A stretch of 64,000 bases of DNA from Chromohalobacter beijerinckii. Lineage in GTDB: Bacteria; Pseudomonadota; Gammaproteobacteria; Pseudomonadales; Halomonadaceae. Positions 72 through 5,384 of the stretch are shown in pieces; within the stretch, counting starts at the first letter, position 1, and each line of letters begins with the position of its first letter. Made by a program: the position numbers and the translations under genes. The stretch covers positions 62,001-126,000 of the forward strand of contig NZ_JAKGAK010000001.1 of assembly GCF_023061185.1 (NCBI RefSeq), given 5' to 3'. Under the pieces are notes generated by a model, which saw only the letters and a program-made list of their open reading frames with translations, did no database searches and was not told the origin of the DNA.

Positions 72-789
72 GCGCACCCTCTCCTTTACAAATCGCCACC
101 GAATTGTCGCCGACCGACATTCTACCGCAGCGAGACCGACTTGACGCCAATTGCTGCGTTATCGCTTTACTGTTATATTCGAGGTTCGTTCAAATGGGCA
201 TCAAGCGCCCGTCAGTTGCGCCTGCTTTGCAGACACGCAGGCCCGAACGAAGAACATGACATCCCCGCTGGCGACGACATCATCGTCGCACTAGGGGAAA
301 CGAACGTTTGGAACGCCATGCCCGCCAGTGGCGCATGATATGTTCTGCGCCACCACACGGGGTGACATAAACACCGTGCCGGGGCAGGCGTCGCCGAATC
401 GACTGATTGCTAGCTGTCTGGCGGATGACCGCAGGGCCGGACGGGCACACTCCCGCCGGGACACGTCCTGCCTCCGCCGCGTACTCAACATGCTCTTACA
501 GTGTTCAGGGATGTATACGACAGGATCGATACGAACGGGATAACGAAGTTGAACACCCCTCGAAGCGCTGGCGGGCCCCCTCGTCCACCGCATTCGGCGG
601 CCATCATCAAGCGCATCGTCCCCGCCGGACGATGACGACCGTTGGTATGCCTGTCTTGTCGCCCACGGCCTTCCGGGTCGCCAAGACATCGTCACGACAT
701 GCACTGAGCACAAGCATGCAAGCAAACGATTCGACGCGCCGTTGCCACGCCTTGTCGTTAGACCGGCACGCCTAGTCAGTGAGACTTGC
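72..789. other. Long rluC-rne intergenic region and rne leader
   Basis: This 718-base stretch holds no convincing gene; the small open frames in it show no family resemblance. It probably carries the rluC promoter (a TAGAAT-like box on the minus strand at 119-124, weak) and the rne promoter near 151-179, leaving a leader of about 600 nt. Three perfect stem-loops stand out: 271-289 (7 bp), 328-353 (8 bp) and 614-634 (8 bp). In E. coli rne has a long structured 5' UTR through which RNase E controls its own mRNA; a similar role here is inferred. Confidence 0.6.
151..179 (+). promoter_or_regulatory. Candidate rne promoter with extended -10
   Basis: A TTGCTG box at 151-156 is followed after 17 bases by TATATT at 174-179. 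A TG sits one base before the -10 box, giving an extended -10 element. It points toward rne and would start transcription near 186. Confidence 0.4.
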
Positions 790-2454
790 ATGAAACGAAT
801 GCTCATCAATGCGACACAGCCCGAAGAGCTGCGCGTCGCACTCGTCGATGGACAACGCCTGTACGACCTAGACATCGAATCCGGTGCTCGGGAACAGAAA
901 AAAGCCAACATCTACCGTGGCCGCATTACGCGTATCGAGCCCAGTCTCGAGGCCGCCTTCGTCGATTTCGGTGCCGAGCGCCATGGTTTCCTCCCGTTCA
1001 AGGAAATTTCGCGGGAATACTTCACCAAAGAACCTTCCGGGCGCCCCAACATCAAGGAAGTCCTCAAGGAAGGTCAGGAAGTCATCGTTCAGGTCGACAA
1101 GGAAGAACGCGGCAATAAAGGCGCCGCGCTGACCACCTTCATCAGCCTGGCCGGGCGCTTCCTCGTACTGATGCCCAACAACCCCCGCGCCGGCGGCATC
1201 TCACGGCGCATCGAGGGTGACGACCGCGCGCAGCTCAAGGACGCCATGGGCCAGCTCACCGTTCCCGATAAGATGGGCGTCATCGTGCGCACCGCCGGGA
1301 TCGGGCGTTCCCCCGAGGAACTCCAGTGGGACATGGATTACCTCGTGCAGGTATGGGAAGCGATTACCGAGGAGGCTGGCAAACGTAGCGCGCCCTTCCT
1401 CATCTATCGCGAGTCCAACGTCATCATTCGCGCCATGCGCGATTACCTGCGCCATGATATCGGCGAAGTCTTGATCGACAGCCCCGAGGTACACGAGGAA
1501 GCCCTGCATTTCATCCGCCAGGTCATGCCCTCCTACCAGAACAAGATCAAGCTCTACGCCGACGACGTTCCGCTGTTCTCGCGCTTCCAGATCGAATCGC
1601 AGATCGAGACCGCCTATCAGCGCGAGGTCAAGCTGCCCTCCGGCGGCGCCGTGGTCATCGACCACACCGAAGCTCTGGTGTCCATCGACATCAACTCGGC
1701 ACGCGCCACGCGCGGCAGCGACATCGAGGAAACTGCGCTACAGACCAATCTCGAAGCCTCCGACGAAATCGCACGGCAACTGCGGCTTCGCGACATCGGC
1801 GGCCTAGTAGTCATCGACTTCATCGACATGACGCCGGCCAAGAATCAGCGCGAAGTGGAAAACCGTGTCCGCGATGCGCTCAAGCTCGATCGCGCCCGCG
1901 TGCAGATCGGACGCATCTCGCGTTTTGGTCTGATGGAAATGTCACGCCAGCGCCTGCGGCCCTCGCTCGGCGAAACCAGTGGCGTGGTCTGCCCGCGCTG
2001 CAACGGTCAAGGCACCATCCGCGATGTACGCTCCATCTCGCTGTCCATCATGCGCCTCATCGAAGAAGAGGCCATGAAGGAGCGCAGCTCGCAGATTCGT
2101 GCGGTCCTCCCGGTGCCGGTGGCGACTTATCTGCTCAACGAAAAGCGCAGCGTGCTCAACGACATCGAGCAGCGGCAAGGCGTCCAGGTCGTGCTCTTGC
2201 CCAACCCTGACATGGATACGCCGCATTACGACATGCAGCGTCTGCGCGACGATCAAGTCAATGAAGAAGACGGCCAGCGTTCGAGCTTCGAACTGCCCAC
2301 CGAGACCGAACTGACGCAGGAACCCGACCCGGCGCTCGAAAAGCCGGTGCAGCGCGCGGAAGCGGCGGTCAAGAGCATCGCACACAACGCCCCGGCACCT
2401 ACCTCGCTGCAGACCGATGCCGAACCCCAAGGCAAGTCGAGCGCAGACTCTTAG
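790..2454 (+). CDS. rne: Ribonuclease E, catalytic half, ended by an in-frame TAG
   Basis: Endoribonuclease E catalytic domain of 554 residues, responsible for mRNA decay and rRNA/tRNA processing. The start [10 protein letters not shown] at 790 fits the family; in-frame codons upstream do not align. An S1 RNA-binding domain covers about residues 38-120. The two metal-binding aspartates of the DNase-I-like site are visible as D300 ([11 protein letters not shown]) and D343 (VVIDFIDM). The zinc-link motif CPRCNGQG, which ties dimers into tetramers, begins at C401. The frame stops at TAG 2452-2454, directly before what should be the membrane-anchor helix, and stays open afterwards to 4269. As written, the product is an RNase G-like soluble enzyme without a degradosome scaffold, unless the stop is read through or is a sequence error. 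Confidence 0.9.
2452..2454 (+). other. In-frame amber codon splitting rne
   Basis: TAG follows the codons for GKSSADS in the rne frame. The same frame continues without another stop for 604 codons, starting PSSVTTPATAPEGG and then LFSRMVKGLGKLLNG. One base change (for example CAG to TAG) would create it. The codon is directly visible; its cause is unknown. Confidence 0.9.
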
Positions 2455-2508
2455 CCGAGCTCCGTCACGACGCCTGCAACAGCCCCCGAAGGTGGGCTTT
2501 TCTCACGC

Positions 2509-4269
2509 ATGGTGAAGGGGCTCGGCAAGCTGCTCAATGGCGATGACAGCGCCGCCTCGTCACAAGGCGCCTCGTCACAGAGTGCCGTGTCCGTCGCCGA
2601 GTCGCCCAAGCGCGCGGCCAGCAAGTCTACGACGGACTCCTCGCAGCAGCGCAACCGTAACGGCAACAACCAAGCGGGACGTTCTGGCGACAAGAAAACC
2701 GCCGACAAGCAGCAGCGTCAGACGTCACGCGACACCGACGAGACGCGCCGCGATACAGCGTCCAGCAATAGCAACAACGCTGGTAACAACGCCCGCAATG
2801 GCAATAATAACCGCCGGCGTCGCAATGGCGAGGAATCGCAAGAGCACCAGGCATCGCGCAACGAAGGCCGTCGCGAGGAGAGCAACAACTCGCAATCCAA
2901 CCGCAATTCGCGGCCTTCGCGTGGCTCCGGCAAGTCGAACAATGCCGAACGTAGCGAAAACGCCAGTAATGGCGACAACGCGAAGCAGGACACGCGTAAC
3001 GACGGTCGCAACGAAGCGCGTAACGCCGGTAAATCCAATAAGTCCCGCGCAGACAACAAGGACGCCAAGGCCAATAAGCCCAAGTCGGAGTCTGCAGCAC
3101 AAGCGACGCCTGATGACAAGGCCTCGGCCTCTCCGGCACAAGACGAAACGCCGAAAGCAGACAGCAAGCCGAAGCGCACGCGCAATAACCCGCGCCGTCG
3201 CAGCCGCAAGCATGCCGTGAATCCGCAATCCGTCGCCGAGCAGGAAAAGCTGCAAGCCCAGCAGCAAGAAGCGGCAAGCGAACCAGCGCAAGACGTCCAA
3301 GGTGAAACCGCCAGCGCCGCGCCCTCGCCCGCCAAGCCGGCAGAAGACAAAGCGAGTGCCACGCCGAGCGAGACGGCATCATCCACCGTGACCGAAACGA
3401 CGTCCGAGGCGACGACATCGCCCAGCGAGACGCAGCCGCGCACGGATTCGGATGATAGCGCTCAAGCGGACGAATCGCGCAAGAATGCGGCAACGCCATC
3501 GCGCCCGACCGAAGCACCGGCGGAAGGCAGCACGACCGAGGCGACGCAGACGCCTGCAGCGGATAGCGCCAAGCGTCCCGCCGCCCAGGCGACGTCGAAA
3601 GATGCTCCCGCTGATGACGCTTCACAAACGTCCGCTGACGACTCTCCGGCACAGGCACCGACGCAAGCCGCTACTGAGGATGCCGACGAAACCGTCGAAG
3701 CAGCCCCCAAGGAGGCAGATCTCACAGAGGCAGATCTCACAGAGAAAAGTGGCACAGCTTCTCCGGCCGAGAAGCACGCCCCGCAGGCTAGCGACGCGCC
3801 GGCCACAAACGAGAAATCCGAGCCGTCTACGCCCACCGAGCCCCTTGCGGCTCAGGCGAGCGATGACAAGCCGGCCAACGATGACGTGACGCCGTCCTCG
3901 CAGACAGAAGACGATAACGTCGCAGTCACCGATACGACCGACGCGACAACGCCCAAGGGCAGCGCCGAAGCGCAGGTCAGCTCGGCTTCGACCCCGACGC
4001 CCACACCGGCGCCCGAGGTTGAAACGCCAGCTGCGACCGACGCACCGGCCAGCACCGAGGAAACACCTGCGACGCCGGCCGAGGCTCCGGCACCGACGAC
4101 CACACCGCGTGCCGAGGAAACATCCGCTCCGGCAGCCACTACTGCGGTAGCGTCGCAAGCGCCCCAGGAAACGGCCACGCCGCGTCCGCGTCGTCGTGCC
4201 CACAACGACCCACGCGAACAGCGTCATCGTCTCCAGGAAAACCTCTTCCGCGGCGACGACAACGCCTAA
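2509..4269 (+). CDS. RNase E C-terminal scaffold region, separated by the amber codon
   Basis: This is the continuation of the rne frame (open from 2455). The first internal ATG at 2509 lies inside the expected amphipathic membrane-targeting helix, LFSRMVKGLGKLLNG, comparable to the segment that anchors E. coli RNase E to the inner membrane. Behind it come an Arg/Asn/Gly-rich RNA-binding-like stretch (about residues 30-240 of this piece, including RNNPRRRSRKHA), then a long acidic Ala/Pro/Thr/Glu-rich disordered region. The tail carries RAHNDPREQRHR, similar to the NDPR-containing tail of Pseudomonas-type RNase E. Joined, the two pieces would span 1159 codons, a normal length for the full protein. 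It is either translated by readthrough, reinitiated weakly at 2509, or decaying. A GGTGGG stretch upstream of the ATG is a poor ribosome binding site. Confidence 0.65.
   Translation: MVKGLGKLLNGDDSAASSQGASSQSAVSVAESPKRAASKSTTDSSQQRNRNGNNQAGRSGDKKTADKQQRQTSRDTDETRRDTASSNSNNAGNNARNGNNNRRRRNGEESQEHQASRNEGRREESNNSQSNRNSRPSRGSGKSNNAERSENASNGDNAKQDTRNDGRNEARNAGKSNKSRADNKDAKANKPKSESAAQATPDDKASASPAQDETPKADSKPKRTRNNPRRRSRKHAVNPQSVAEQEKLQAQQQEAASEPAQDVQGETASAAPSPAKPAEDKASATPSETASSTVTETTSEATTSPSETQPRTDSDDSAQADESRKNAATPSRPTEAPAEGSTTEATQTPAADSAKRPAAQATSKDAPADDASQTSADDSPAQAPTQAATEDADETVEAAPKEADLTEADLTEKSGTASPAEKHAPQASDAPATNEKSEPSTPTEPLAAQASDDKPANDDVTPSSQTEDDNVAVTDTTDATTPKGSAEAQVSSASTPTPTPAPEVETPAATDAPASTEETPATPAEAPAPTTTPRAEETSAPAATTAVASQAPQETATPRPRRRAHNDPREQRHRLQENLFRGDDNA
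3712..3741 (+). repeat. Tandem 15-bp direct repeat in the rne scaffold
   Basis: Two identical copies of GAGGCAGATCTCACA follow each other and encode a repeated EADLT unit in the disordered part of the RNase E tail. Slippage in low-complexity coding sequence is the simplest origin. Confidence 0.85.
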
Positions 4270-4305
4270 GCCCCAAGGCGGCCGACTCGGTCGCCTTCCA
4301 GACAT

Positions 4306-4344
4306 AAAAAACGCCTGAAGGAGCGCTCCTTCAGGCGTTTTTTT
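4306..4344. terminator. Bidirectional intrinsic terminator between rne and murB
   Basis: A perfect 14-bp palindrome (arms 4311-4324 and 4325-4338) is flanked by an A-run on the left and a T-run on the right, so it can end transcription of rne rightward and of the murB operon leftward. Confidence 0.92.
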
Positions 4345-4382
4345 ATGGTCGGCTCACCGTTGGCGAGCGCAGGCGGCCCCAG

Positions 4383-5384
4383 CTACCCCATCAGGCGCGG
4401 CTCTCGCTCCAACGCCACTCCAAATGTCTGATACACGGTATCGCGAATATGATCGGCCAATGCCAACAGTTCCTGCCTGTCGCCACCACCTAAGTGCACC
4501 AGCACCAAGGCCTGGCGTTCATGCACGCCAAAGGCGCCCCAGCGAGTCCCTTTGAAGCCACAGCGTTCGATCAACCAGCCCGCGGCCAATTTGACGCTTC
4601 CATCCGGTTGCGGGAAATGCGGCATCACGGGATATTCCTGCAGAAGACGTTCGGCTTGGGTCGCCTCGAGCACGGGGTTGGTAAAGAAGCTGCCGGCGTT
4701 GCCCAACACGGTGGGATCGGGCAACTTCTCTCGCCTCACGGCACACACGGCATCAAAGATCTCCCGCACTTCGGGATGCACCGAGACACGCTGGGCGAGA
4801 TCACCGTAGCCCACGCGCGGCGAAGGACTCCGCGACAACCTCAGCACCACCTGCGTCACCACGACACGCCCCGCCAAGGCGCGTTTGAAAATACTGTCAC
4901 GGTAGGCGAATTCACAATCATCGCGTGTAAAAACGGCTTCGCGGCCATCATCGCAGTGCATGACATGGACCGCCTCCAGCACGTCGGCAAGCTCGACGCC
5001 GTAGGCGCCGATATTCTGGATCGGTGCGGCACCTACATGACCGGGAATCAACGCCAGGTTTTCAATTCCCCACCAACCGCGCTCGACACATGCCGTGGCA
5101 AGAGCGTGCCAGGACAACCCCGCCTGGGCGTATACGAGAACCGTCTGGTCATCGCTTTCTTCCCACCACCAGTCGTCACACGCCACCTGCAAGGTGATCC
5201 CGGGGAGATGGGGAGCCAAGATCAGATTACTGGCACCGCCCACGATGTTGAGCGGCACCGCATCATCCGCTGCCATGACTAACGCGGTGCGTATCTCCTC
5301 ATGCGTGGTGGCCGCGATGAAACGCTCCGCACGACAGGGCAACCCCATCGTATTATCGAGTGTCGCGGCCTTAGCGAGCGCCAT
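4383..5384 (-). CDS. murB: UDP-N-acetylenolpyruvoylglucosamine reductase MurB
   Basis: A 333-residue FAD enzyme that reduces UDP-GlcNAc-enolpyruvate to UDP-MurNAc with NADPH in the cytoplasm, the second committed step of peptidoglycan synthesis. The FAD-binding motif VGGASNLIL lies at about residues 48-56. GNAGSFFTNP (228-237) carries the proton-donor serine S232, and the conserved C-terminal glutamate is in LEREPRLMG. Length and layout fit type I MurB of E. coli. I chose the ATG at 5384 ([15 protein letters not shown]) because it has a GGAG site just upstream and overlaps the end of the phosphatase gene by 14 bases, suggesting translational coupling. It is the last gene of the minus-strand envelope operon, just before a strong terminator. 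Confidence 0.95.
   Translation of the reverse strand: MALAKAATLDNTMGLPCRAERFIAATTHEEIRTALVMAADDAVPLNIVGGASNLILAPHLPGITLQVACDDWWWEESDDQTVLVYAQAGLSWHALATACVERGWWGIENLALIPGHVGAAPIQNIGAYGVELADVLEAVHVMHCDDGREAVFTRDDCEFAYRDSIFKRALAGRVVVTQVVLRLSRSPSPRVGYGDLAQRVSVHPEVREIFDAVCAVRREKLPDPTVLGNAGSFFTNPVLEATQAERLLQEYPVMPHFPQPDGSVKLAAGWLIERCGFKGTRWGAFGVHERQALVLVHLGGGDRQELLALADHIRDTVYQTFGVALEREPRLMG

What the first reader, a model, noticed from the sequence alone, without database searches (positions are those of the whole stretch)
2440..4269. RNase E split by an in-frame amber codon just before the membrane anchor
TAG 2452-2454 ends the catalytic half at residue 554. The same frame then stays open for 604 codons and encodes the amphipathic helix, arginine-rich region and acidic tail expected of the RNase E scaffold. 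If real, the cell would make a soluble RNase E without membrane attachment or degradosome, or produce the full protein by amber readthrough, or restart at the ATG at 2509 inside the helix. The downstream frame still shows coding character over 1.8 kb, with no second stop or frameshift, so the stop is recent, tolerated, suppressed or a sequence error.
Basis: partly seen in the sequence, partly recalled or inferred. Interest (0 to 1): 0.75.

Follow-up and report, generated by a model that had tools for sequence, protein, structure and literature searches.

The report
Recent stop codon truncating RNase E
In one salt-loving bacterium the gene for the RNA-degrading enzyme RNase E carries a stop codon halfway along, which should leave a working enzyme without its membrane anchor and partner-binding tail; the change looks recent and is of an already known sort, and a base-call error has not been ruled out.

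Summary
In this Chromohalobacter genome rne starts at ATG 790, stops at TAG 2452-2454 (554 aa), and the same frame stays open for 604 codons to TAA 4267-4269. The first part is a complete RNase E catalytic half. The second holds the membrane helix, an AR1-like arginine-rich stretch, an acidic stretch and a terminal NDPR motif. All 9 congeners held have one unbroken rne of 1142-1189 aa, so the ancestor was a single gene. The scaffold frame shows no decay: 2 of 151 residues invariant in the congeners have changed, as in sister species. The stop is therefore recent or a base-call error. In 184 kb compared with two relatives no other convincing broken conserved gene was found. None of 58 tRNAs found has a CTA anticodon, RF1 is intact, and TAG ends 16 of 130 intact reference ORFs, so suppression is disfavoured. 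Restart at ATG 2509 is not excluded. Most likely this is a recent nonsense allele giving a soluble, degradosome-free RNase E, like E. coli rne131 or P. aeruginosa rne529. It is mildly interesting and not a new kind of system. A second in-frame stop in the RNase E tail was found in a family member whose contig matches Oceanospirillum maris.

The parts
790..2454 (+). rne, catalytic half only: 554-aa RNase E ending at TAG
   Evidence: Pfam RNase_E_G 1.1e-100, RNase_E_G_Thio 4.3e-33, S1 1.1e-12; NCBIfam NF008074 ribonuclease E 942.5 bits over cut-off 908; 97-99% identity to 9 congeners
2452..2454 (+). in-frame amber codon; the alignment column holds a sense codon in 6 of 9 congeners and a gap in the other 3 (short hypervariable linker)
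2455..4269 (+). stranded scaffold frame, 604 codons plus TAA, homologous to the C-terminal half of fused congener rne
   Evidence: no Pfam or NCBIfam match at E 0.01
2494..2535 (+). membrane-targeting amphipathic helix GLFSRMVKGLGKLL; the windows of highest hydrophobic moment in the stranded frame overlap it
   Evidence: conserved in congeners
2487..2511 (+). possible restart site: ATG 2509-2511 with a G-rich stretch 5' of it
   Evidence: -7.8 kcal/mol pairing with the anti-Shine-Dalgarno, matched or beaten at 2.0% of 1000 random window positions; spacing to the ATG is long; shared by sisters as coding sequence
3166..3225 (+). AR1-like arginine-rich motif KPKRTRNNPRRRSRKHAVNP (name by analogy with P. 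aeruginosa RNase E; no motif search was run)
   Evidence: motif name from PMC11964227
4189..4248 (+). terminal NDPR motif (PNPase-binding motif in P. aeruginosa)
   Evidence: PMC11964227; PMC4435900 lists NDPR for Oceanospirillales and Pseudomonadales
4310..4344 (+). inverted repeat plus T run after the TAA, read by eye as the terminator of the whole original gene
   Evidence: Sequence; the consensus scan listed only minus-strand sites, so this rests on reading alone

Best explanation
A recent, lineage-specific nonsense allele of an ordinary fused RNase E gene. Shown: the ancestral gene was one frame, the stop is unique to this genome among 10 congeneric genomes, and the catalytic half is complete. 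Inferred: the cell makes a 554-aa RNase E that cuts RNA but has no membrane helix and no binding sites for PNPase and RhlB, so RNase E floats in the cytoplasm and no degradosome is assembled on it. The 1.8 kb after the stop is transcribed, up to the distal terminator, but mostly untranslated. From the E. coli and P. aeruginosa alleles one expects viability with slower mRNA decay, slower or cold-sensitive growth and changed motility.
For: 9 of 9 congeners have a single unbroken rne of 1142-1189 aa. The truncated product keeps all catalytic-half domains and passes the NCBIfam RNase E cut-off. In the scaffold half this genome has changed 2 of 151 residues that are invariant in the other nine; the same count is 1 of 150 for G001, 3 of 152 for G002, 3 of 152 for G004 and 5 of 154 for G006. 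Its private codon changes there, against G002, G004 and G006, are 7 synonymous and 5 nonsynonymous, against 79 and 80 pooled in those three (Fisher P = 0.77), so there is no sign of decay since the stop. Of 144 ORFs conserved in two relatives over 184 kb, 130 are at least 92% full length here. The 14 others are rne; 4 beyond the compared stretch; 3 start-choice differences; 1 absent here; and 5 short ORFs with in-frame stops, of which 4 overlap longer ORFs conserved in both relatives and 1 lies across the gap between two longer ORFs. No CTA-anticodon tRNA was found among 58; RF1 is intact. Precedents: E. coli rne131 (residues 1-584) and an evolved IS1 truncation after residue 702 (PMC8361080, passages); P. 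aeruginosa RNase E 1-529, off the membrane, barely growing at 16 degrees on plates (PMC11964227, passages); E. coli RNase E without its membrane helix, viable but slower growing (PMC6850036, passages).
Against: One draft assembly of 60 contigs; no reads and no conspecific genome were available, so a base error at this position cannot be excluded. The lack of decay is also what an error or a suppressed stop would give. The test has little power: with 12 private changes, P(5 or fewer nonsynonymous) under neutrality is about 0.02-0.04, which says that the scaffold was under constraint for most of this branch. Nothing measures the protein product.
Confidence: 0.72

Rival explanations
1. The TAG is a base-call or assembly error in a draft genome, and the real gene is an ordinary full-length rne.
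For: The downstream half is under the same constraint as in sister species. The stop occurs in one of 10 genomes of the genus. Draft assembly of 60 contigs. Most other short rne frames found in the family are contig ends or frame shifts, several of them in incomplete genomes.
Against: It is a substitution, not a homopolymer indel. No other convincing broken conserved gene was found in 184 kb. Completeness 100 and contamination 0.02.
Confidence: 0.18
2. The gene is now a working two-piece gene: ribosomes end at TAG 2452 and restart at ATG 2509, so the cell makes a catalytic RNase E and a separate scaffold with most of the membrane helix.
For: ATG 2509 is the only in-frame ATG after the stop and lies 54 bases past it. 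The stretch before it pairs with the anti-Shine-Dalgarno at -7.8 kcal/mol (2.0% of 1000 random positions are as strong).
Against: The same stretch exists as coding sequence in sisters with an unbroken gene (-7.8 in G002 and G004, -7.7 in G006), so it did not arise for restart. Spacing to the ATG is long. No plus-strand promoter-like site between stop and ATG. In E. coli the catalytic part and the C-terminal part did not complement each other as separate proteins for flagella (PMC12399333, passages).
Confidence: 0.06
3. Amber suppression or natural readthrough still makes useful amounts of full-length RNase E.
For: The frame is intact and constrained.
Against: 58 tRNAs found, none with a CTA anticodon. 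RF1 is intact with a score like that of 4 congeners. 16 of 130 intact reference ORFs end in TAG, against 85 TGA and 29 TAA. The tRNA list lacks Ile-GAT and Ala-TGC, so a few tRNAs, probably in collapsed rRNA operons, were not seen.
Confidence: 0.03

Closest known systems
E. coli rne131 (BL21 Star) and the Evo21(DE3) IS1 truncation of rne
   Same: RNase E loses much or all of its C-terminal scaffold while the catalytic half stays complete; viable (PMC8361080, passages)
   Different: rne131 ends at residue 584, after the E. coli membrane helix (565-582 in PMC4435900); Evo21 keeps 702 residues. Here the helix is lost too. Those alleles come from a suppressor screen or an evolution experiment; this one is in a sequenced genome and untested
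P. aeruginosa rne529 (constructed RNase E 1-529)
   Same: Cut before the membrane helix; loses helix, AR1, other RNA-binding motifs and NDPR (PMC11964227, passages). This is the best functional match
   Different: Constructed deletion in another genus; here a nonsense codon with the scaffold DNA still in place
E. coli rne-deltaMTS (cytoplasmic RNase E)
   Same: RNase E off the membrane (PMC6850036, passages)
   Different: Only the membrane attachment site is deleted there; here the whole scaffold is lost as well
In-frame TAA in the rne scaffold of G191 (contig length and position agree with Oceanospirillum maris DSM 6286)
   Same: An in-frame stop in the disordered half with 339 open codons after it and a terminal NDPR motif
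   Different: Stop after residue 778, past the membrane helix and an arginine-rich stretch; only the distal part is cut off

Membership tests
RNase E (catalytic half) | S1, RNase E/G and small C-terminal domains in one chain, over the RNase E cut-off | tested here: met
   Pfam S1, RNase_E_G and RNase_E_G_Thio; NF008074 942.5 bits against 908
Gammaproteobacterial RNase E with scaffold | Catalytic half continuous with membrane helix, arginine-rich motif and terminal partner-binding motif | tested here: not met
   All parts are present in the DNA, but a TAG separates them from the catalytic half; 9 of 9 congeners have one continuous frame
C-terminal truncation allele of rne (rne131, rne529 type) | Catalytic half complete and in frame to the stop | tested here: met
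C-terminal truncation allele of rne (rne131, rne529 type) | Parent gene full length in close relatives | tested here: met
   9 of 9 congeners
C-terminal truncation allele of rne (rne131, rne529 type) | Stop confirmed in the organism and full-length protein absent | not testable with these tools
   No reads, conspecific genomes or proteome held
Amber-suppressing or stop-recoding genome | tRNA with CTA anticodon, altered RF1, or several conserved genes with in-frame TAG | tested here: not met
   58 tRNAs without CTA (Ile-GAT and Ala-TGC tRNAs not seen, so the list is incomplete); RF1 intact; besides rne, 5 of 144 reference ORFs have in-frame stops here, all short, 4 of them shadows of longer conserved ORFs, and only one holds a TAG, together with a TGA
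Two independent genes | Own promoter and start for the downstream gene; split also in relatives | tested here: not met
   No plus-strand promoter-like site by a sigma-70 consensus scan; fused in 9 of 9 congeners

The most novel reading that the evidence does not exclude
A natural isolate has recently uncoupled RNase E: a free, soluble catalytic enzyme from the first frame and a separately made scaffold, restarted at ATG 2509, that gathers PNPase and RhlB at the membrane without the nuclease. It would be a degradosome split in two by one codon.
Probability: 0.04. Interest if true: 0.6.

Novelty: new member of a known kind. Interest (0 to 1): 0.27.

Why it matters
If real, it is a natural counterpart, in a free-living halophile, of laboratory RNase E truncations, and it shows that losing membrane attachment and degradosome assembly together can be tolerated outside the laboratory models. 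With the in-frame stop found in G191, it suggests that the disordered half of RNase E is an occasional target of loss. That could be measured across isolates. If it is a base error, it is a caution for annotation.

Tried and rejected
Independent downstream gene: rejected, since the frames are fused in 9 of 9 congeners and no promoter-like site lies between stop and ATG on the plus strand. Decay of the scaffold after the stop: none seen, with low power. Suppressor tRNA: none found. Recoding: not supported. Literature: searches listed no paper that I recognised, from titles and abstract starts, as describing a natural nonsense allele of rne in this family; one search listed 20 of 138 papers and one search listed 20 of 26. 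One search found one paper holding both 'Chromohalobacter' and 'RNase E', seen as a listing only. These searches cover open-licence full texts only.

Family survey: the other short rne frames that I opened resolved to contig ends, frame shifts or, in G191, an in-frame stop. In the order-level survey (145 genomes) the RNase E rows with frames under 800 aa were G000, G347, G355, G322, G313, G382, G297 and G377. For G313 and G355 the contig ends inside the gene. G347, G322, G382 and G297 lie within about 1000 bases of a contig end on the side of the 3' part (coordinates only). G377 was not resolved: my script found no start there. Several genomes in that call had no listed RNase E row or only weak ones (for example G328, G376, G397, G367, G411), and I did not follow them. 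I dropped this survey from the argument. A structure prediction was not run, since the stranded half is disordered by analogy and the question does not turn on a fold.
Full report
What is there. The window is G000:C1:62001-126000 of a 3.34 Mb draft in 60 contigs, completeness 100, contamination 0.02. The window's own record is not named by any tool, so the genus is inferred from these. rne runs from ATG 790 to TAG 2452-2454 (554 aa); the same frame then runs 604 codons to TAA 4267-4269. The first product has the S1, RNase_E_G and RNase_E_G_Thio Pfam domains and passes the NCBIfam RNase E cut-off with 942.5 against 908 bits, matching profile positions 1-549 of 1068. The downstream frame matches no Pfam or NCBIfam family at E 0.01, as expected of a disordered region.

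Chance. With the base composition of the stretch, 604 codons would stay open with P about 3.5e-6, and the other five frames hold 4 to 29 stops. Homology settles it better: in 9 of 9 congeners (G001-G009) one unbroken frame of 1142-1189 aa covers both halves. The TAG column lies in a hypervariable linker; 6 of the 9 congeners have a sense codon there and 3 have a gap.

Anatomy of the stranded half. A membrane-helix motif GLFSRMVKGLGKLL at 2494-2535 coincides with the highest hydrophobic moments in the frame. An AR1-like motif lies at 3166-3225 and the NDPR motif at 4189-4248. Residues 61-260 after the stop are basic and 261-575 acidic. In P. aeruginosa NDPR is needed to bind PNPase and AR1 to bind RhlB (PMC11964227, passages). 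NDPR is listed for Oceanospirillales and Pseudomonadales in PMC4435900 (passages). That these motifs bind the same partners here is inference.

Age of the stop. In the scaffold half this genome has changed 2 of 151 residues invariant in the other nine. The same count is 1 of 150 for G001, 3 of 152 for G002, G003 and G004 each, 9 of 158 for G005, 5 of 154 for G006, 2 of 151 for G007, 23 of 172 for G008 and 93 of 242 for G009. Private codon changes against G002, G004 and G006 are 7 synonymous and 5 nonsynonymous in this genome, and 79 and 80 pooled over the other three. Under neutrality 5 or fewer of 12 would be nonsynonymous with P about 0.02-0.04. So the scaffold was constrained for most of this branch, and the stop is young, or an error, or somehow bypassed. 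The numbers are small.

Mosaic gene. The closest congener changes along rne. Among G002, G004 and G006 it is G006 through most of the catalytic half, G004 from about residue 561 to 880, and often G002 after that, with exceptions. The first switch lies near the stop, in the linker. Recombination may have shaped this linker, but nothing shows that it made the stop.

Is the genome or its code at fault? I compared 184 kb of this genome with G002 and G006: of 144 ORFs conserved in both relatives, 130 are at least 92% full length here, ending in TGA 85, TAA 29 and TAG 16 times. The 14 exceptions are rne; 4 ORFs beyond the compared stretch; 3 start-choice differences; 1 ORF of 562 aa without a counterpart; and 5 short ORFs (91-180 aa in G002) with in-frame stops here. 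Of these 5, 4 overlap longer ORFs that are conserved in both relatives, so they are shadows; their stops are TGA, TGA, TGA and TAA. The fifth, 180 aa, holds a TAG and a TGA and lies across the gap between a 601-aa ORF, also 601 aa in G002, and a 359-aa ORF; it is probably not a gene, but I cannot prove it. An earlier comparison of the window alone with three relatives gave 45 of 50 ORFs within 8% of the length, rne being the only large truncation; one small ORF (86 aa in G002) aligned only in part and was not followed. RF1 is intact, 545.7 bits against 544.7-547.7 in 4 congeners. RF00005 found 58 tRNAs; reading them with ARAGORN gave 58 genes and no CTA anticodon. Ile-GAT and Ala-TGC are absent from that list, so rRNA-operon tRNAs were probably not assembled and the list is not complete. 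Suppression is disfavoured.

Restart. ATG 2509 is the only in-frame ATG after the stop; five in-frame GTG codons follow. The 22 bases before it pair with the anti-Shine-Dalgarno at -7.8 kcal/mol, a value reached by 2.0% of 1000 random positions, but with long spacing. G002 and G004 have the same value and G006 -7.7 with an unbroken gene. The true start at 790 scores only -3.6, reached by 28% of random positions, so this measure predicts little. The only promoter-like site found in 300-4500 is on the minus strand.

How unusual. Of 275 genomes of the family, 274 had some match. Frame lengths were read over, because one search listed only part of its rows; the handles not listed there were collected by hand. 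G235 had no match and G150 only an RNase G-like one. Frames under 800 aa were seen in 9 genomes: G000; G191, an in-frame TAA after residue 778 followed by 339 open codons with a terminal NDPR motif; G180, a frame shift within the scaffold; G137, G273 and G245, which I read as frame shifts, in genomes of 76, 89 and 86% completeness; G275 and G140, cut by contig ends in the stretches fetched; and G288, several pieces in a genome of 74% completeness (not examined further). A stop later than about residue 800 would have been missed. So a clean in-frame stop in the earlier part of the scaffold was seen in 2 of these genomes, and one before the membrane helix only here. G191's contig length (335836) equals that of NZ_AUGW01000003.1, Oceanospirillum maris DSM 6286.

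What it does. If the base is right, the cell makes RNase E 1-554. Published alleles say this is survivable. E. coli rne131 lacks the non-catalytic region and an evolved strain lacks the last 359 residues (PMC8361080, passages). E. coli RNase E without its membrane helix supports growth, more slowly (PMC6850036, passages). P. [quoted passage not shown] An E. coli truncation (Rned500) is not flagellated, and the two parts must act in one chain (PMC12399333, passages). Nothing here measures the phenotype of this organism.

Verdict. The best reading is a recent nonsense allele of a known kind; the main rival is a base-call error.

Noticed in passing
   Followed up: partly
L191 (G180:C6:18500-26000), locus about 3797: RNase E frame shifts in the scaffold before a stop after residue 709; the rest of the scaffold, with its NDPR motif, continues in another frame. 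Real mutation or indel error.
   Followed up: partly
window 790-4269: rne is a mosaic: nearest congener is G006 through most of the catalytic half, G004 after about residue 561, often G002 after about residue 881; the first switch lies near the stop.
   Followed up: partly
G000, whole draft: The tRNA list lacks Ile-GAT and Ala-TGC, suggesting that rRNA operons are collapsed or missing in the assembly.
   Followed up: no
G000 and G002 syntenic stretch, G2 joined coordinates 141644-143332: A 562-aa ORF shared by G002 and G006 has no counterpart in the compared part of this genome.
   Followed up: no
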